Shown piece by piece: positions 3,319 through 23,889 of a DNA stretch of 43,870 bases. Within the stretch, counting starts at the first letter, position 1. Every line of letters begins with the position of its first letter. The translations under genes were made by a program, and so were the position numbers. Source of the DNA: Acidobacteriota bacterium (GTDB taxonomy: Bacteria > Acidobacteriota > Terriglobia > Acidiferrales > UBA7541); NCBI GenBank assembly GCA_003223255.1, contig QHYJ01000143.1, forward strand, positions 1 through 43,870, given 5' to 3'. Under the pieces are notes generated by a model. It saw only the letters and a list, made by a program, of their open reading frames with translations, made no database searches and had not been told where the DNA came from.

Positions 3319-5054
3319 TCAGCGAACGGAGCCGACGAAAACACCGAACGGGGCGATGGCGAAATTCGCCAGAGGCATCGAAGTTTGCGCAGGCTCCGGG
3401 GCGCCAAGCAAAGCTTTCGCGGAGCTACCCTTGATGCCGAGCGAGGCGAGATCGAACTTCACGGTGCGCGGCTCGCCGCTCATGTTCAGCACGACTAAGA
3501 CGGAGTCGCCGTTGCCGGGATTTTTGCGCAGGAAAGCGAGAACGTTAGGATCGTCGCGGTCCAAAGACACGCATGTTTCGCAAGGCGGGCTCGCTTTGGC
3601 GCAATTCCAACAGGCGTTTGTAGAAGGACAAGATGGAGTGAGGGTCCTTCGACTCGACTGCGACGTCATATTCGGCGGCGCTGGGCGGAATCGGAAGCCA
3701 CGTATGGTCCGCGGTGCTGAACCCCGCATCTTTTGAAGTGTCCCATTGCATGGGGGTGCGCTCGCCGTCGCGGCCTTTTTCTTCCGGCCAGCCGATTTTC
3801 CCGATGGGATCCTGGACGTCTTCCTTGCGGGTGGGAGGCGTCGTGCGCATGCCAATTTCTTCGCCGTAGTACATGAGCGGCGTGGCGCGCGGCGTGAGAA
3901 GAAGAGCCGCCATCAGCTTGGCGATTTGGTCGTTGTGCACGCCGTCGCCGTAGCGATCCCATGTGCGCGGCTGGTCGTGGTTGCTGAAAAAGTAGTGAGG
4001 CTGGTCGTGGGCAGGATTGTTCTCGACTTCATCCAGCAGCTTACGGAAATCCGGCGCGGAGAGCTTGTTCACGTCGGCAATCTGAAAATCCATCGGCAAC
4101 TGCACTTCGTCGTTTTTGGCACCGTACATTTTCGTGAGCTCTTTGATGTTCGGTTCATCGGCCTCGCTGATCAGCACAGGGTTTCCAGGATAGGCGTCGA
4201 CGACGCGCCTCCGGCAAGTTATCCGTGTATTTGTGCGCGATGTTCGGATCGCCATAGGCATTATTCCCCGGCGAAATCGGGTCGTCGTGCAAATTGGGAT
4301 CTTCGAATAACCGCGACACGGCATCGAGACGGAAGCCAGCCGCGCCGCGATCGAGCCAGAAACGCATGGCGTCGTACATGGCCTTGCGCACTTCGGGATT
4401 GCGCCAATTCAAGTCCGGTTGTTCGACGTAGAAGTGGTGGTAGTAATACTGACCGGTCGCGGGATCGAATTGCCAGGCGGAGTGGCCAAACCACGATTGC
4501 CAATTGTTGGGAGGCTGGCCGGGGCCCTTGCCGTCGCGCCAGATGTACCAGTCGCGCTTCGGATTCGTGCGCGAGGAGCGCGACTCCTTGAACCACGGAT
4601 GCTGATCGGAAGTGTGATTGGGAACGAAATCCATAATCACGCGGATATTTCTTTTCTTCGCTTCGGCCATCAACTGATCGAAATCCCCCAGCGTGCCGTA
4701 AAGAGGATCGAGGGCGGTGTAGTCGGCGACGTCGTAGCCAAAATCCACAAGCGGCGAGGGGTACATCGGGGTGATCCAGATGGCGCCGATGCCCAGGTCG
4801 TGCAAGTACTCTAAGCGGGACGTGACGCCATTAATGTCGCCCACGCCGTCGCCGTTCGAGTCCTGAAAGCTGCGCGGGTAAATCTCATAGATCACGGCGT
4901 GCTTCCACCACGGATCTTGCGCCGTTTGAGCGGCTTGATGGACGTGCTTGTGTGTGGCTTTCGGAGCAGGGAGCTGCTGCGCTAAAGCTGGGATTGCAGC
5001 CAAGCAAAGGCCGAGTATTAGAGCGAGACGAGAAAACTTAGCGAGCTTCGACAC
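3319..5054 (-). pseudogene. GH13 alpha-glucosidase-like, copy A, frameshifted
   Basis: Starts with GTG at 5054, with AGGAGAG 7 bases upstream, and a signal peptide ending ALAQQ. The (beta/alpha)8 GH13 signatures are in order: DFVPNHTSDQHPWF, FRLDAV (nucleophile Asp), LISEADEPN (acid/base Glu) and SNHDQPR (third Asp). The gene cannot give one protein. Near 4205-4212 the frame shifts after NLPE and about eight expected codons before VVDAYPG are missing, so this is a deletion of a non-multiple of three. A second shift lies near 3560-3590 between EPALR and VSLDRDDPN. The C-terminal beta domain ends at 3319. It is the last gene of a minus-strand cluster, 38 bases after the TPR chimera, and is a diverged paralogue of the copy at 17983-19684. 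The secreted form would have hydrolysed malto- or isomalto-oligosaccharides. Confidence 0.85.
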
Positions 5055-5092
5055 GGCTTCTCTCCTGGAATGCTTTTGTTCGAGTGTTCCGG

Positions 5093-7984
5093 TTACGGCC
5101 TTGCTTCTCCCCGGTTCTGCAACTGTTCCGACAACTTGAGTTCGCGCTCGGCGTCCTCCGTCCGGCCCAATTCCCGATAAGCGAGCCCGAGCAAATGATG
5201 CGGAATGGAATTATTCGGATCCATGGCGATGGCGCGCTGCAAGGCGCGAGCTGCGAGCAGCGGCTCTCCTTTTTTTTCGAGCACCTTTCCCATCAGGATG
5301 TACGGTCCAGTCGAAGTGGCGTCGAGCCAGATCGAGCGCTGCAACAGTTTTTCTGCGTCCTCGTATTTCTGCGCGCGTGTGTAGGCATCGGCGAGTTTGT
5401 AGTAGATGGCGGCGTCACCGGGATTCAGCTCCAATTCTTTCTGAAACTGTTCGGTGGCTTCGGGAATGCGCGACTTATAAAGATAAATCTCTCCTAACAG
5501 CATGTGCGCCAGCGGAAGTGTGGGATCCAACTCGACGGCCTTCTTTGCGTACTCTTCAGCGAGGGGCGCAAAATCCTGACGCAGGAGCATTCGCGCCGTG
5601 AAGAGATAGCTGGCGGCAGAATCGGGAAGAACCGCAAACATTTTCGCGAAGGACTTGCGCGCGCTGGGATAATCCTTCGTCTGGATGTAGCAGATGCCGA
5701 GAATGTACGAAGCATCGACGTTTGCGCTGGGAAACCAGGTTTGCACTTTTTCGAGGGGCCCGATGGCGTCAGCGGGGTGTCCAGCGAGATAGCTCGAGAT
5801 TCCCATCAATTGCAAGGCTTCGTTGTCGGCCGGATCCGCGGCGAGAGCTTTCTTCAGATTCGCGGCCGCATTCAGATAATCGCCCTTCTTGTAATAGACG
5901 ATTCCTAATTCATGGGCGAGTCCCTTCGTATCGGGCTGCTTGGCGGCCAGCGATTCGAGTTGCCCAATCGCTTCGTCAAACTTCCCTTGCTGCGATAAAC
6001 GACGCGACTCAGCAAAGGCCGCATCGGGCGATACGATCTGCTTGGGTTTAGGTGCCTCGAGTTGTTTCGTCGGCGCGCTGCTCTGCGCTTGGGCCGAAAC
6101 TGCGCCGCAAAGAAACAGGAAACTCATCAGAAAAGCCGCACTGGAATACCGAATGCGGCCGGACGGAGCCCCGGCGTTCCCATCCGACATTCTTGCAACT
6201 TCGAGCACAGACAACCCCTGCCTTTCGCCCATTACGGTTGAGGATGATGCTTCCGCAAGATTGCCCGTTTCTGCCAGGGCGCCGCCCAAGTTGGCCTCCG
6301 CATTGGCATCCTCGGGCCGCAAACGGACCGCAGCACGATAATGTTCAATCGCCTCGGCGAACTTCTTCTGAGAAATAAGCGCGTTCGCGAGATTGTATTG
6401 TGCGTCGAAATTGTCGGGCTGCACTTTGAGCGCCGCAGACAGATAGGATATGGCCTCGTCGACCCGCCCCGCGGCCAAAAGGGAAGCGCCAAGCGCATTG
6501 TTCGCGGTGGCGTCCTGAGGGCGAAGCTGCATGGCCTGCTCAAACTGCCGAATCGCTTCGGCCTGCTCGCCGCGGGCCATGAGCATGGCCGCAAGGTTGT
6601 AGTGCGCTTCAAAATCAGCGGGATTCTTTTCCACGTTGTGCCGGGCCATGGCTTCCTGCAACAGCATGCGTGGATCGAAAGCCATATCCGGGGAGGTGTG
6701 CGGAAGAACCTGAAGCCACAGGTGGGCCATCTCGTCGCTCGAGTGATTCCCAGCCATAACGGGGCGCGGCGGGTCGTTTGGGTTGGTCACGTTATCGCTG
6801 GAGTTGTCGTAGACGTAGTGCATCGAAATCGTGGTTCCCTTCGGCAGGGTTACCGGCGCCGCATAGCGATAAACGGCCTGCCAATTCAAATTCCATTGGG
6901 GAATGTGAATCAAAGTCCTTGCCGAGCCGTCCGGCAAAGCCGCCAAGGCCTGCAAATCCTTGCCGAGATAATGCGCGTGGGGATAAATCGCCAGCAAATC
7001 CACATCCTCGGGAAGCATAAATTTGTCCGTCACGACGAAATGCTTTTCCCCAGGAGGGATGTCGAGCTGACGATCGTTTTCCAGCTGGAGCAGCACTGGA
7101 AAGAGCGTCGCGGGCTTATCGGTAAAGTACAGCCCAAGACTAGGCTGGATCGTCTCCGGCTTGCCAGACGGTTGCAGGTGGATGTTCAAAACCAAATCCG
7201 TGTCCTTGTCCAAACGCAATGCCATACCTTCCGGCTCGGGCCGGGGCACCGTCCCGGGCTTCCAAAAAAGAAAGTGGCTGTCTGGATCAAACGTCTCCGA
7301 TTCGATCTTAAGTTCCATTCCCGCGAACCCGGCGCCGGGTTCTGACTCCTGGCGGCGCGCGGCCTGGTTGCGATCCACAAGAATGTTGGCGTGGTGAACG
7401 ACGCGTTTGTCGCCGGGCCGGATTTCCACGGCTTTCAGCCAGCGTGTGCGATCCACGGGCGTTCGAAAGACGAAATTCCAATACATATCGGAGCCGCCGG
7501 CGGGAAGCGTGTAAGGCTTTTCTGCCCGGATGATTTTATCGGGTTGGCCGAGCTGCCAGCCCGCAACAAATCTCGGGGCCGGAGGCAGATCTTCAGGAGC
7601 GCCCTCCGCAGCGCCTTGCTCGACCCATCTTTGAAAGAGGGCAATCTGTTCGTCGGAGAGACGGAGTTCGTCGGCAAATTTCGCCGGCTGAGGCTCCGGC
7701 AACCACGGAGGCATGAACCGCGTCGCGGTCACTGCAGCGATCTGCCGGGCGTGTGCTTTTGCGTCCTTGTAAGTGAGTAGCGGGAAGGGACCCGCCTCGC
7801 CGGGCCGATGACACGGAGCGCAGTACTGAAACACGATTGGAGCAATGTCGCGATTAAATGTGACTTGTTGAGCCGTAGGCAGCGTGCGTCGCACAGGAGC
7901 GCCGTCATGCTTGGCAAAAGCTGCCGCTGTCGCGGAACTCAATCCAAGCAAGCACGCAACGAGGGTTCGGCGGGAAGAGGTCAT
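5093..7984 (-). CDS. Chimeric cytochrome c / copper monooxygenase-like / TPR protein with internal signal peptide
   Basis: A 963-residue frame. Residues 1-24 are a signal peptide. A c-type heme site CAPCH lies at 55-59 with Met91 as a candidate axial ligand. A PHM-like copper domain follows with HH 197-198, His269, HAH 336-338 and Met419, all positions expected for both copper sites. TPR units occupy about 445-580. At about residue 580 a TPR helix stops in the middle (GNLAEA) and is followed by possible starts at 585 and 599, then a second signal-peptide-like segment (about 610-632, ending VSAQAQ). A further set of about eight TPR units runs to the end. This reads as two secreted proteins joined in frame by a deletion. 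The start ATG overlaps the redoxin stop (ATGA), implying translational coupling. The N-terminal half is probably a periplasmic copper/heme redox protein of unknown substrate. Confidence 0.75.
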   Translation of the reverse strand: MTSSRRTLVACLLGLSSATAAAFAKHDGAPVRRTLPTAQQVTFNRDIAPIVFQYCAPCHRPGEAGPFPLLTYKDAKAHARQIAAVTATRFMPPWLPEPQPAKFADELRLSDEQIALFQRWVEQGAAEGAPEDLPPAPRFVAGWQLGQPDKIIRAEKPYTLPAGGSDMYWNFVFRTPVDRTRWLKAVEIRPGDKRVVHHANILVDRNQAARRQESEPGAGFAGMELKIESETFDPDSHFLFWKPGTVPRPEPEGMALRLDKDTDLVLNIHLQPSGKPETIQPSLGLYFTDKPATLFPVLLQLENDRQLDIPPGEKHFVVTDKFMLPEDVDLLAIYPHAHYLGKDLQALAALPDGSARTLIHIPQWNLNWQAVYRYAAPVTLPKGTTISMHYVYDNSSDNVTNPNDPPRPVMAGNHSSDEMAHLWLQVLPHTSPDMAFDPRMLLQEAMARHNVEKNPADFEAHYNLAAMLMARGEQAEAIRQFEQAMQLRPQDATANNALGASLLAAGRVDEAISYLSAALKVQPDNFDAQYNLANALISQKKFAEAIEHYRAAVRLRPEDANAEANLGGALAETGNLAEASSSTVMGERQGLSVLEVARMSDGNAGAPSGRIRYSSAAFLMSFLFLCGAVSAQAQSSAPTKQLEAPKPKQIVSPDAAFAESRRLSQQGKFDEAIGQLESLAAKQPDTKGLAHELGIVYYKKGDYLNAAANLKKALAADPADNEALQLMGISSYLAGHPADAIGPLEKVQTWFPSANVDASYILGICYIQTKDYPSARKSFAKMFAVLPDSAASYLFTARMLLRQDFAPLAEEYAKKAVELDPTLPLAHMLLGEIYLYKSRIPEATEQFQKELELNPGDAAIYYKLADAYTRAQKYEDAEKLLQRSIWLDATSTGPYILMGKVLEKKGEPLLAARALQRAIAMDPNNSIPHHLLGLAYRELGRTEDAERELKLSEQLQNRGEARP

Positions 7985-8574
7985 TCCGTGTCCGCAATGT
8001 AGCAACCTACGCCGGGTGCGCTGGATGGCGGAGCTTTCCCTGTGAGAGCCGCCTGGATGGCGTCGTCGAGTTCGTGCGTGGTGGCAGCAGGCCGGGCGTG
8101 GCCAAGATCTTCATACCAGTTATCGATGCGCCCGTGGTAGATGAGCCGATGATGCGCGTCGAAGACCGCCACTTCCGGCGTAACCTGAGCCTGCGCTTGC
8201 GCGACGAGCGCATGTTGCTGATCACGCAACGCGGGGAGCTGGTAGCCATACTCGGTCTCATGTCGGCGAATTTTTTCCGTCGTAGCCGTCTTGCCAAGGT
8301 AGACAAGCCAGAAGCGCGCCTTGCCCGCATACTGCGCGCTGATTCTCCGAATCAACGGCGCGTAACGGTTGGAGATGGGGCAATCCGTGCGCAAGAACAC
8401 GAGCACAACCGGTTTTCCCGCTGCTTCTTGAAAAGGATCAGCGGGAGTTCCATCCACGTGAAGCGCGGTCTTTTGCGCGGCCAGCGCAAAAGGAAAAGCT
8501 GAAAGAACAACCCCTGCGGTTAGCCGAGAGAAAGAGACATAAAGCCGGCGTGGGATGAATCTAGAGACTTGCAT
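7981..8574 (-). CDS. Secreted redoxin (AhpC/TSA-thioredoxin fold)
   Basis: A 197-residue protein if started at ATG 8574; an upstream ATG at 8646 gives a longer but less signal-like N-terminus. Residues 1-32 form a signal peptide with a basic n-region (RFIPRR) and cleavage after ALA. The thioredoxin-fold core has VVLVFLRTDCPISNRYAP, with the single peroxiredoxin-type Cys at position 65, and later VTPEVAVFD containing the cis-Pro region. A second Cys near the end (GVGCYI) matches the C-terminal GC motif that I recall from redoxins fused to cytochrome/copper monooxygenase proteins. It overlaps the downstream cytochrome/copper gene by four bases, so it probably acts on that protein or its copper and heme thiols. 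Exact substrate unknown. Confidence 0.75.
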   Translation of the reverse strand: MQVSRFIPRRLYVSFSRLTAGVVLSAFPFALAAQKTALHVDGTPADPFQEAAGKPVVLVFLRTDCPISNRYAPLIRRISAQYAGKARFWLVYLGKTATTEKIRRHETEYGYQLPALRDQQHALVAQAQAQVTPEVAVFDAHHRLIYHGRIDNWYEDLGHARPAATTHELDDAIQAALTGKAPPSSAPGVGCYIADTE

Positions 8575-8669
8575 CAGCGTACTCGGGCCTGTTGCTCCAA
8601 AAATTTTACTGCCCCGCGAAGAACCTTGTCTATTCTGCAGAGCCATTTCCTAGGCGTCCGCCCAACCCA

Positions 8670-17982: not shown

Positions 17983-19684
17983 ATGCTAAGAAAATGGATG
18001 GGCGCGACAGCCCTGGCGTTGTGCCTTTGCGTCGCTTAGTCTGCGTTTTCACAGCAGAAGTCCGTTGACGCCGAAGGTCACCAATGGTGGCAGCACGCGG
18101 TGTTTTATGAGGTTTATCCGCGAAGTTTTGCCGACAGCAACAACGACGGCATCGGCGACGTGGATGGCATCGCCTCGAAACTTGACTATCTGGAGGAACT
18201 TGGCGTGAACGCCATCTGGATCACTCCGTGCTTTCCTTCTCCGCAGATCGATTTCGGCTACGACGTCTCCGACCACGAAGCGATCGATCCGATGTACGGC
18301 GATGAAAGACTTTGATCACCTGATGGGCGAAGCAAAGAAGCGCAACATCCGCGTCATTCTCGATTTCGTGGTCAATCACACTTCGGACCAGCACAAATGG
18401 TTCGTGGATTCCAAATCGTCCAAAACGTCGGAGCACCGCGATTGGTACATCTGGCGCGACGGCAAAGGCCCCGGGCAGCCGCCCAACAACTGGCTATCCA
18501 CTTTCGGCCTGTCGGCGTGGAAATTCGATCCGAAAACGAATCAGCATTACTACCACTATTTTTATCCCGAGCAGCCGGATTTGAATTGGCGCAATCCCGC
18601 TGTCGAAAAAGCCATGCTGGATGTGACACGCTTCTGGTACAAACGCGGCGTCGCGGGTTTTCGCCTCGACGCCGTGGATACGCTCTTTGAAGATCCCAAC
18701 CTGACCGACAATCCCGTGCTGCCGGGCACGGACAAATTCGGCCGCCCGAATATGGAGGAGAAGTACAACAAAAAGTTGCCCGAAGTACACGACGTGATGC
18801 GCAAGCTGCGCAGCGTCGCCAATGAATACGGCTCGGTGCTGATTGGCGAGACCTGGACCTCGAATGTTTCGGAACTCAAAGATTATTACGGGGCGCACAA
18901 CGACGAGCTGCAACTCCCCATGGACCTGATGATGACGGATTTCAAAGGTCTTTCTGCGGACCAATACCGCAAGCACATTGCCGCGATGGATGCCGCGGGC
19001 GGCTGGCCCACCTACGTCATCACCAATCACGACATCGTGCGCTCCTACACGCGCTACGCCGACGGCTCGCACAATGACGACATCGCCAAGACGATGGCCG
19101 CGCTTTACCTGACGCTGAGCGGCACTGCCATCCTGTACTACGGCGAGGAAATCGGCACGGAAAACAACGACCCGAAGAGCAAGGACGAAGTGCAAGATCC
19201 CATCGGAAAGCTGGGCTGGCCGCTCGAAAGAGGCCGAGACGGCGAGCGCACACCGATGCAATGGAACGATGGCTTGAACGCTGGATTCAGCAAGACCAAG
19301 CCGTGGCTGCCCGTTCCTGCGAGCGCCAAGACTCACAATGTGGCCAGCGAAATGAAAGATCCGAATTCCGTGCTGAGCTTCTACCGGCAATTGGTCGAGT
19401 TGCGGCACAAGGAACCAGCATTGCTGGAAGGGAGCTACACTGCTGTGGACGAAGATGATCCGAATGTGTTTTCGTATGTCAGGCGCTACAAGGACGAAGC
19501 CATTCTTGTGGTGCTGAACATGTCGGCGTCGGAACAAAAAGTGCGATTCGATCTGTCGCCACTGGGACTCACCGCTCCCAGGCTTAGCGTCCTGCTCACA
19601 AGCTTTCACAAACCACTAAGTGGAATGACCGACGCTCTGCCGATGGAGCCGTACTCCGCATTCATTGCCAAGATTACGAAGTGA
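17983..19684 (+). pseudogene. GH13 alpha-glucosidase-like, copy B, interrupted
   Basis: Reading from ATG 17983 (GGGGAGAG upstream), a signal peptide begins but TAG at 18037-18039 replaces the expected Gln after LCLCVA. The same frame then continues with SAFSQQKS and the GH13 N-terminus. A second lesion lies near 18298-18302: after DPMYG the frame is shifted, consistent with loss of two bases from GGCACGATG. From 18302 the frame is open to TGA 19684 with all catalytic motifs: VVNHTSDQHKW, FRLDAVD (nucleophile), LIGETWTS (acid/base) and TNHDIVRS. Similarity to copy A at 3319-5054 is strong over the whole length but diverged, so this is an old duplication. Two independent lesions make it a pseudogene, although the 460-residue 3' frame lacks only the barrel's first strands. 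Confidence 0.85.
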
Positions 19685-20446
19685 TTCTGCTCCCTGTTTG
19701 GCAGTGCTTGTTCAGAAACCGAAACACATCGTCGGCCCAAACAGAGCCTCCGAAATAGCCAAACGTGTGGCCATCTTGCACGGACTTCCCAAACGGCGGA
19801 TAGATCTTGAGCTCGAATTCCTTGCCAGCGCCCTTCATGGCATCCGAAAGAACCCGGCTCGGAGACAGGTCGTAATCGTTCTCAGCCTGAAAGAAAAAGA
19901 TTGGCCGCGGGAATTGCGCACGCTGCGCGTCATCAACGATTGAAGTTCGGGCGCTTGGGCCCAGCTTTGAGCACCACCTGCAGAATCGATCGCCGCGCAA
20001 TAGGAAGCGCGTTCGGCACCTAAGATAGCCTCGATGCCGCCGAAAGAATTCCCAGCAACAGCGATCCGATCGGGCTTAACAAACCTTTGTGTTCGCAACC
20101 ATGCTAACGCGGCGAGTTGGTCGTTTAGGTGGTCCGTCTCAAGCAAGCGAACCATCGTCCCCGCCCCGCTGGCGATACCTCCCGTTGTTGTCGCTGCGGC
20201 GATCTCATCTCCAATGTACTTACGCGCCGAAGCACTTAGGCCTTGGCCTCTCCGGTACGGTCCGAAGAACACCCAGCCGTTCTGCGCAAAGACAGGCCCC
20301 AACACATCGAAAGCTTCTTTGCTGAGCATGCCGGGAGCGCTCCCATGGTTGTAAACAACTGCCGGGAACGGACTAACTCCGTCTGGCCTGTACAACGCGC
20401 CATGAAGTGTAAGCTCCCCGCTCGGAAACGTGACTACCTCGCCCCC
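19674..20446 (-). pseudogene. Dienelactone-hydrolase-like alpha/beta hydrolase remnant
   Basis: Coding similarity starts at EVVTFPSGELTLHG (20440), directly after an in-frame TAG at 20447-20449. The start codon and any signal peptide are missing. The alpha/beta-hydrolase elements are visible: YNHGSAPG (oxyanion region), GNSFGG (nucleophile Ser, near 20040), ENDYDLSPS (acid) and DGHTFGYFG (His, near 19760). Between 19900 and 19940 the frame shifts: VRNSR in one frame is followed by PIFFFQAEN in another. The 3' end overlaps the end of GH13 copy B by 11 bases, tail to tail. It is a 5'-truncated and frameshifted remnant, adjoining the altered 3' end of the GH130-like gene. Confidence 0.8.
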
Positions 20447-21482
20447 CTAACGGATGAGATGGTGACGGTGGCGCTGACGAAAGACCAGAGTCTTGGAGTT
20501 CCTGAGCTTCTGCCACTCCGACGTACTTATCTGCGCCACCGTAATAAAAGAGCCAGAGATTGTTCTGCGGGACCATGCCTTCGACAAACACCACGTTAGG
20601 CACCTGGCCAACCTCTTCCCAGTGCTTTTCTGGCGAAAAAATCGGGCTATCGGAACGATAGAGAACTTTTCGGGGATCATGGGAATCGAAGATGGCTACA
20701 CCGGTGCGATACACAAGGTTGTCGTCGGCGCCGTTGTAAATCAGCACGATGCCTTCCTTCGTGAGAATCGGCGGCGCGCCTGGCTCGACCACACGCGAGT
20801 CGAACTTGCCCGGGCGCTTCGGCAGCGCCGGAGTTTGGGTCGCCTCGGTCCAGTGGAGCAAGTCCGTGGACCACGAAAGGCCCATCTGGTCGGTCTTATC
20901 TGCGGCGGTCCCTAGCCAATACATCCAATACTTGCCATCAATCTTTTCCGGAACGATGGCGCCGGACTTCGTCCAGCCTTTGTTCCAGTTTCCTTTATAG
21001 GCGGGCAGGATCACGCCTTTACGCTCCCAGTGAATCAAGTCGCGCGAGGTGGCGAGGCAAAGCTGCGCGTCTTTTTTATTGTAGCCGGTGTAGGTGAGGT
21101 AGTATGTGTCGCCAAATTTCTGCAGGCGTGGATCTTCCACGCCGCCATCTTTTTCGTAGTCCGTCTCGGGAGCAAAAACCGGCTCCGGCCGTCGCGCGAA
21201 GTGAATCCCATCGGTGCTCTGGGCATAGCCCAAACGAGAAGTTCCCGCGGCGTCCTGCGCGCGATACAGCATGATGAATTTGCCATTGTGAAAGACGACC
21301 GCAGGGTTGAACGTGCCCGCCGATTCCCAACTCGAACCCTCGGGAGAGAGGATGGGCTCGTTCGACGCGCGGGACCAGGCGCCGAAAGGGAGTTTGGGAG
21401 TTTGCGCGGCCAGGGTCAGTGCGGCAGCAAGAGCCAACGCTGTAACAATCAATCGGACAATCGGATTTTTTGGTTTTAGCAC
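20373..21482 (-). CDS. GH130-like glycosidase/phosphorylase with altered C-terminus
   Basis: A 369-residue secreted five-bladed propeller. GTG 21482 starts a signal peptide ending LAAQTPK. Family motifs include NPAVVFHNGKFIMLYRA, EDPRLQKFGDTYYLTYTGY, GWTKSGAI, EPGAPP and YYGGADKYVGVAEA; the EDPR block is typical of GH130 mannoside phosphorylases/hydrolases. The propeller is complete by about 20500. The last 40 or so residues, from QELQDSG on, are translated from the intergenic region and, out of frame, from the beginning of the hydrolase remnant. The original stop was therefore probably removed by a deletion. The enzyme may still fold. It lies 60 bases after the decayed permease, in the same direction. 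Confidence 0.75.
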   Translation of the reverse strand: MLKPKNPIVRLIVTALALAAALTLAAQTPKLPFGAWSRASNEPILSPEGSSWESAGTFNPAVVFHNGKFIMLYRAQDAAGTSRLGYAQSTDGIHFARRPEPVFAPETDYEKDGGVEDPRLQKFGDTYYLTYTGYNKKDAQLCLATSRDLIHWERKGVILPAYKGNWNKGWTKSGAIVPEKIDGKYWMYWLGTAADKTDQMGLSWSTDLLHWTEATQTPALPKRPGKFDSRVVEPGAPPILTKEGIVLIYNGADDNLVYRTGVAIFDSHDPRKVLYRSDSPIFSPEKHWEEVGQVPNVVFVEGMVPQNNLWLFYYGGADKYVGVAEAQELQDSGLSSAPPSPSHPLGGRGSHVSERGAYTSWRVVQARRS

Positions 21483-21542
21483 CCGGAAAGTCTAACACCA
21501 ATCGATTTTCCGTCGGCGTCCGAGCGGTGAAATCGCGACATC

Positions 21543-23862
21543 CTACTCGTGCCGCAAGGCCACGATCGGATCGACGCGCGACGCTCGCCGCGCGGGCAGG
21601 AATCCAGCTAGCAGCGCCACGCCAGCCATCAATTCCATTGGCGGCCCAAGCGGGCGAGAGCGAGCGCAGCAGGAATGCCTACCGCAAGCCCGGCTGTGAC
21701 GAGCAGCGAAACTTGCCGCATGACCATCCATTGCACGCTGCGCGTTTCCGCGCCAAGCGCGATGCGAATGCCGATTTCCCGCGTGCTCCGCGCGACGGCG
21801 TAGGCCATCACGCCGTAAAGCTCGATGGTCGCGAGCAGCGCGGCAAGCAATCTAAAAACCGATGACAGGCTGGCGATCATACGCTCGGCGGAAAGCGAAC
21901 CGGTAATTTGCTCCTCCATGGTCCGCATGGCGGTAATCGGCAGGCGCGCATCCATCTGGCGAACTTTTTCGCGTGCGGCTCGCATCACAGGAGCCGGGTC
22001 GCCCACCGTGCGCAGGTACGCGGTCATTCGGCTCTGGCCGGTAAAGCCTGCGGCCAGATAGGGAAGAAACGCCTCTTCCGGAATGTCGTCCCGCAAGCCG
22101 GTATACTTCGTGTCTTTCGCCACGCCAACAATTTCCATGTTGGTTTTGGTTCCGGGATCGGTGCCGAAGCCCAGGTGCAACCCGATGGGATTCCTTCCCG
22201 CAAAGTAACGTCGCGCAAGAGTTTCATTGATGACGACAGCGGTGGCAGATTCTTCTTCGTCTTTGTCAGGACTTTTCTTCAGGGGGATGCCGTCTTGCGG
22301 CGTGAAATCGCGTCCGCCGCGCACCACGGAGCTTGATTCATCCTTCAAGCAGCTATTGAGATCCGTTTTCGTGGACTGCAGCGCCGGCGCAAAACCGAAG
22401 GCAATTCCCGTAACAAGCGTAACACTCAAGGTAAAAAGCAGAATCCGTGCGTCCGGCGCCGCGGAAATGTTTAAGGCGGTTGTATCCGCACCCAAATAGG
22501 CCGCCATCAGCGCCTGGTCCGCCCAGAACGCCAGCGCCAAACCCGCGAGTCCACCGAGAGCAGACAGGACCAGGCTTTCGATCAGGAGTTGATGGAGTAT
22601 GCGGCCGCGGCTGGCGCCAATGGCCAGGCGCACGCCGATCTCTTTTTGCGGTCCCGCCGCCCGCGAGAGCAGAAGGTTTGCCAAGTTGCCGCACGCAATG
22701 AGCAGCACCAATCCTGTGGTGGCCATCAGACCCACAGAGGCGTGGTCAAGTCATTGCGGGTGTACGAGAAGCCTTTCGATCCGGGTAAAACGTTCATCCA
22801 GGATTTGAGGAACTCCTCGCGATCATAAGCCGAGGCGTGGTTAAATGCCGGTTGCTTCACTTCCATTTCCAGCATGGCATGCGTCAACGGCTGCAGCGCA
22901 GCCTTAGCCTGCTCTATGGTTGCGCCGGGTTTCAGGCGCCCAAACGCCTGCATCCAGCGCGTGCGGCGGTCGGTCAGCAAGGGCGTTTTGCGTTCACCCA
23001 TGAACGCTTCCTGCATCATGATGGGCACGAACAGATTCGCCGCCCGATCGGCCTCCACGCCATCGAATCCCGCCTGGGCTACGCCGACCACGGTCGAGTT
23101 ACGGTTGTTGACCAGCAGCGTTTTTCCGACGATGCCAAGATCCCCGCCCCATCGCTCCTTCCAGAATGCGTAGTTCAGCACCACCAGCGGTTCACCATTA
23201 GGCACTTGGTCGGCCTCCGGCGTGAGCGCGCGCCCTAAAGCGGGGCGGACTCCAAGCACGCTGAAATACGTGCCGGAAACCAACTCGACGCGCACGCGTT
23301 CCGCTTGTACGCCAAACGACAAGCTGGTGGTGGTGGAGCGGTGACCAAACATGCCGGAAAACACTTCGTTGTGCTCTTGAAGGTCGCGGTACATCGGGTA
23401 GGACAACACGCTGTCGCCGGAGCTATTCCCGTATGGGTGGCCGACCAGATCCAGCAACACGAGTTGTTGCGGATCTTGCACGGGCAGCGAGCGCAAAAGA
23501 ATCTGGTCGAGCAAAGTAAAGATGGCGGTGTTGGCGCCGATGCCCAGCGCGAGCGTCAAGATCGCGACAGCGGCGAAGCCAGGAGATTTGCGCAGCATGC
23601 GAAAGCTGAAACGTAAGTCTTGCAAGAACACTTCCAAAATACGCGTGCTCAGTGCTTCGCGGCATTCTTCTTTGAAACTTTCGTGGCCGCCGAATTCGAT
23701 GCGCGCCCGGCGCTCCGCTTCCGTGCGCGTCATGCCCAATCGCTCCAGGTCATCCGCGCGATGTTGCACGTGCGCCCGCAATTCTTCCTCTGTCTCTCCT
23801 TCCACGCGTGTGCGCTGCAACAGGGCCGAAACGACGGAACGAGCCCACGAAAAAAGTTTCAT
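21543..23862 (-). pseudogene. ADOP-type MacB/FtsX permease, decayed
   Basis: The N-terminal half is normal: an ADOP cap (EELRAHVQHRADDLERLG...EFGGHESFKEECRE), the first membrane span (AAVAILTLALGIGANTAIF) and the MacB periplasmic domain. Three lesions follow. At about 22735 one base is missing between LWV and LMATTGLVLL. Near 22310-22325 an in-frame deletion joins ESSSVVR to GGRDFTPQDG and removes a membrane span and part of the second periplasmic domain. Near 21620-21650 the last spans are deleted with a frameshift before [19 protein letters not shown]. The locus is 386 bases shorter than the intact paralogue upstream at 23890-26595, from which it is separated by 27 bases. ADOP proteins lack a paired ATPase; their transport role is not established. 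Confidence 0.88.
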
Positions 23863-23889
23863 GTTTCCCCCCTTGAACGGGCAGGGTTT

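What the first reader, a model, noticed from the sequence alone, without database searches (positions are those of the whole stretch)
5093..7984. Two secreted proteins fused in frame, with a signal peptide in the middle
A TPR helix is cut at about residue 580 and followed by start-like Met codons and a typical signal peptide before a second TPR array. A single deletion that removed the 3' end of the cytochrome/copper/TPR gene and the 5' leader of the next TPR gene explains it. If translated as one chain, the internal hydrophobic segment would act as a membrane anchor or be cut, a new topology.
Basis: partly seen in the sequence, partly recalled or inferred. Interest (0 to 1): 0.6.

Follow-up and report, generated by a model that had tools for sequence, protein, structure and literature searches.

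The report
Spurious gene fusion, likely assembly error
Two neighbouring genes for secreted proteins appear as one long gene only because 86 bases are missing near the end of the first; every relative keeps them apart, and the same draft genome has similar damage elsewhere, even in an apparently essential gene, so this is most likely an assembly error.

Summary
The open frame is really in the sequence: 963 codons on the minus strand, 7984 to 5093, with a signal-peptide-like stretch at residues 615-633. All 22 other loci found with both genes neighbouring on one contig keep a stop codon between them; many genomes carry gene 2 alone. Against the closest relative (G012, 90% identical) the window lacks 86 bp at 6247/6248. 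That gap lies wholly inside the 3' end of gene 1. It removes most of the last TPR, but neither the stop codon nor the leader of gene 2: gene 1's TAA is still at 6232-6234, out of frame, and the linker is mostly translated intergenic DNA. I judge it most likely a local assembly error: this genome shows 11 other frame breaks in 69 kb of aligned coding sequence, against 1-2 in 54-67 kb for two relatives, and one lies in the accA-linked dnaE (19-bp gap plus nonsense codon). A real, very recent frame-shifting deletion is the main rival; an old functional fusion is effectively excluded. No reads were available, so artefact versus recent mutation is inferred, not shown.

The parts
6248..7984 (-). Gene 1 remnant: secreted protein with N-terminal signal peptide, CxxCH haem motif, weak Cu2_monoox_C match and TPRs; residues 1-579; lacks the conserved C-terminal part of the last TPR
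   Evidence: ORF; Pfam (Cu2_monoox_C and Cytochrome_CBB3 below Pfam cut-offs); orthologues end ...HFQRALQIDPHHKLARENLEQI...
6247..6248 (-). Junction of the 86-bp gap (length mod 3 = 2) relative to G012; about 1 bp of microhomology
   Evidence: Alignments
6232..6234 (-). Original stop codon (TAA) of gene 1, still present but out of frame; overlaps ATG 6230-6232 (TAATG), as in G012
6143..6247 (-). Linker SSSTVMGERQGLSVLEVARMSDGNAGAPSGRIRYS (residues 580-614), mostly translated intergenic/leader DNA
6086..6142 (-). Signal-peptide-like segment of gene 2 (SAAFLMSFLFLCGAVSAQA), residues 615-633
   Evidence: Hydropathy; orthologues have a signal peptide at the same place; no dedicated predictor run
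6135..6136 (-). Site of a second, 36-bp in-frame gap in the signal-peptide region of gene 2 relative to G012
5093..6085 (-). Gene 2: mature TPR protein, intact
   Evidence: 60-89% identical standalone orthologues
7981..8646 (-). Upstream redoxin/thioredoxin-like gene, overlapping gene 1 by ATGA; conserved neighbour
   Evidence: Pfam Redoxin; synteny
3322..5063 (-). Downstream alpha-amylase gene, broken by 14-bp and 26-bp frame-shifting gaps at about 3571 and 4204; intact (589-608 aa) in four relatives

Best explanation
Two adjacent genes (a cytochrome/copper-like/TPR protein, then a separate secreted TPR protein) lie downstream of a redoxin gene. In this draft assembly an 86-bp stretch inside the 3' end of gene 1 is missing. 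The shift of frame bypasses gene 1's stop and continues through an intergenic stretch that happens to be open into gene 2. The missing stretch is most likely a local assembly error, one of many in this genome, so the living cell most likely makes two separate exported proteins. Shown: the gap, its position, the two-gene state in relatives, and the excess of frame breaks in this assembly. Inferred: that the gap is an assembly error rather than a mutation.
For: All 22 loci with both genes neighbouring on one contig have a stop between them (ten relatives read in detail). Gap placement and the retained out-of-frame TAA. Four gaps of 14, 26, 36 and 86 bp within 2.7 kb, three of them frame-shifting. 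11 other frame breaks in 69 kb of aligned coding sequence in this genome, against 1 in 67 kb (G032) and 2 in 54 kb (G018), neither of the latter clearly its own. dnaE next to accA has a 19-bp frame-shifting gap plus a TAA, while relatives have intact 1170-1194-aa frames. Both halves show purifying selection (dN/dS about 0.12 against G012), so no long decay. Local assembly errors that corrupt gene sequences are described for metagenome assemblies and suspected to be most prominent in IDBA-UD (PMC7111523).
Against: No reads were available. The gap is clean, with almost no repeat at its ends. rpoB, rpoC, fusA, tuf and ileS are intact, so the assembly is not uniformly bad. Two further DnaE-family genes exist in the genome, so the dnaE argument is strong but not absolute. 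Small 1-2-bp indels occur among the breaks too. Which assembler made this genome is unknown.
Confidence: 0.68

Rival explanations
1. A real, recent 86-bp frame-shifting deletion in the 3' end of gene 1 in this strain. Translation would give one long precursor with an internal export signal, cut by signal peptidase I after AQA or kept as a membrane anchor, and/or internal initiation at Met 585, 599 or 620 would still yield gene 2 alone. Gene 1 would lose its last TPR.
For: The junction is clean and in frame; both halves are otherwise intact and conserved; the hydrophobic segment and cleavage motif are retained.
Against: Unique to one draft genome. The lost C-terminus is conserved down to about 60% identical orthologues. 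Comparable frame breaks crowd this assembly.
Confidence: 0.25
2. An old, selected fusion protein with an internal signal peptide and a new topology.
For: Open frame through both halves.
Against: No relative has it: 22 neighbouring loci are split by a stop and many genomes have gene 2 alone. The linker is intergenic DNA that is not conserved as protein in relatives.
Confidence: 0.02
3. The whole genome is genuinely decaying, and the fusion is one of many real pseudogene events.
For: Many frame breaks, spread over several contigs.
Against: The accA-linked dnaE is among the broken genes; dN/dS stays low in the two halves; the genome is large (6.66 Mb) and 97% complete.
Confidence: 0.05

Closest known systems
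Local assembly errors in metagenome-assembled genomes (PMC7111523)
   Same: Unsupported consensus that yields incorrect protein-coding sequences; [quoted passage not shown]
   Different: Read support could not be checked here, and the assembler used for this genome is unknown
Two-gene arrangement of related soil Acidobacteria (records titled 'gp2 AA...', Candidatus Sulfotelmatobacter and others)
   Same: Same gene order redoxin, cytochrome/copper/TPR, TPR in the near relatives; 60-90% identical proteins
   Different: A stop codon separates the two genes in all of them
fbcH of Bradyrhizobium japonicum, one precursor cut into cytochrome b and cytochrome c1 (own knowledge; no paper found)
   Same: A precedent for an internal export signal in one long precursor
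   Different: fbcH is conserved and experimentally studied; this fusion is unique and probably not real

Membership tests
Internal-signal-peptide precursor (fbcH-like polyprotein) | One open frame holding two exported proteins with an export signal between them | tested here: met
   (sequence level only)
Internal-signal-peptide precursor (fbcH-like polyprotein) | Fused arrangement conserved in relatives | tested here: not met
   Stop codon between the genes in all 22 other neighbouring loci
Internal-signal-peptide precursor (fbcH-like polyprotein) | Processing shown by experiment | not testable with these tools
   No proteomic data for this genome
Local assembly error | Sequence departs from all close relatives at a single site, without regard to reading frame | tested here: met
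Local assembly error | Similar defects elsewhere in the assembly, including genes that must work | tested here: met
   11 other breaks in 69 kb; accA-linked dnaE; other DnaE-family genes exist, so essentiality is inferred
Local assembly error | Consensus lacks read support | not testable with these tools
   No reads available

The most novel reading that the evidence does not exclude
A real, recent fusion in one soil acidobacterium makes a single exported precursor that signal peptidase cuts, or that stays anchored, at an internal signal peptide.
Probability: 0.08. Interest if true: 0.35.

Novelty: not a real feature. Interest (0 to 1): 0.08.

Why it matters
It warns that fused or split proteins read off single draft metagenome genomes should be checked against relatives and against essential genes of the same assembly before a new architecture is claimed. 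If it were real, it would be a natural young example of two exported proteins becoming one precursor.

Tried and rejected
An old functional fusion: rejected on 22 neighbouring, stop-separated loci. My own first reading, that the long open frames listed for G008, G032, G028 and G006 (999-1049 codons) were fusions: wrong; translation shows a stop after gene 1 in each. A repeat-mediated deletion: only about 1 bp of microhomology. Possible break in C62 at L100:8596: tblastn shows a frame change but no window-specific gap was found in the DNA alignment, so it is counted in the 11 with caution. Paper searches for fbcH found nothing usable.

Full report
Observation. The frame runs on the minus strand from ATG 7984 to the stop ending at 5093 and encodes 963 residues. 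The ATG overlaps the stop of an upstream redoxin-like gene (ATGA). Pfam sees TPRs on both sides of the junction. The N-terminal domains give only sub-threshold matches to Cytochrome_CBB3 and Cu2_monoox_C, with a CxxCH motif visible in the sequence. Hydropathy shows two equal peaks: the N-terminal signal peptide and residues 615-631. The description is therefore correct.

Relatives. A search of 61 genomes and of the species genome collection found both halves as separate proteins. In nine close relatives the first gene ends with a conserved ...RALxIDPxHKLAxENLEQI... tail and a stop, and the second gene follows with its own signal peptide. Of the loci, 22 carry both genes on one contig, in order (in one, L084, about 1.9 kb apart), and all have a stop between them; many others carry gene 2 alone. 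Some of these loci are the same genomes as. No fused form was found.

The junction. Against the nearest relative G012 the window lacks 86 bp at 6247/6248. The lost DNA is entirely gene 1 coding sequence. Gene 1's TAA is still at 6232-6234, and it overlaps an ATG as in G012 (TAATG). Because 86 mod 3 is 2, the frame shifts, misses the TAA and reads on through the intergenic stretch, which is open in this frame in both G012 and the window. Most of the 35-residue linker is therefore intergenic DNA. A second gap of 36 bp shortens the signal-peptide region of gene 2.

Quality of the assembly. The neighbouring amylase gene is broken twice (14 and 26 bp gaps), while four relatives have it intact. Further breaks occur at 18300 (2 bp), 19904 and 22729 (1 bp each), 20442 (1 bp inserted) and 21633 (about 61 bp), with a 405-bp in-frame gap at 22319. 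Other contigs show a 17-bp gap (C262) and a 70-bp gap (C178). With one script applied to all three genomes, this genome has 11 frame breaks (the fusion not counted) in 69,171 aligned coding bases, G032 has 1 in 66,655 and G018 has 2 in 54,040. The two in G018 do not look like breaks of its own: one is the gene 1/gene 2 boundary seen against the fused frame, the other is called against G032's own broken frame. An earlier version of the script undercounted because of a chaining fault and is superseded.

The best-scoring DnaE of this genome, next to accA, has a 19-bp frame-shifting gap and a TAA about 115 bp downstream, where relatives read GAA. Relatives keep 1170-1194-aa frames in the same place. 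A broken replicative polymerase is hard to reconcile with a living cell, although two other DnaE-family genes are present, so its essentiality here is inferred. In contrast rpoB, rpoC, fusA, tuf and ileS are open, so the defects are local.

Selection. Between the window and G012 dN/dS is 0.123 for the gene 1 part and 0.116 for the gene 2 part. Neither half has been decaying for long. This fits an artefact or a very recent event and says nothing for an established fusion.

Literature. [quoted passage not shown] Several relatives bear titles of a 'gp2 AA' soil series; a grassland soil study that used IDBA-UD is PMC6784897, but I did not establish that these records, or the window, come from that study.

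How it most likely works. Inferred from the relatives: two separate exported proteins, each with its own signal peptide, made from neighbouring genes. If the junction were real, the internal segment could be cut after AQA (residue 633) or serve as an anchor, and internal starts could still give gene 2 alone; none of this was tested.

Verdict. Two separate genes, joined on paper by a gap that is most likely an assembly error; a real recent frame-shifting deletion is the main alternative. What remains unshown is read support.

Noticed in passing
G000 contig C20, 12100-12330 (L175): The dnaE next to accA carries a 19-bp frame-shifting gap and a nonsense codon; two other DnaE-family genes are in the genome (C301, C142).
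   Followed up: yes
window 18013-19681, 19701-21491, 21546-23874: An amylase paralogue, a 602-aa protein and an ABC permease are each broken by small or large indels relative to relatives.
   Followed up: partly
L088 (G012:C16), around 7112-7181: The closest relative has its own 146-bp gap in the amylase gene.
   Followed up: no
L062, 4779-4789: Gene 1 changes frame within the locus of another draft genome with a title of the same 'gp2 AA' series.
   Followed up: no
window about 6187-6215 and relatives: Part of the intergenic stretch (CTTGAAGTTGCAA-like) looks similar in several relatives; possibly a leader or regulatory site of gene 2, or just short divergence.
   Followed up: no
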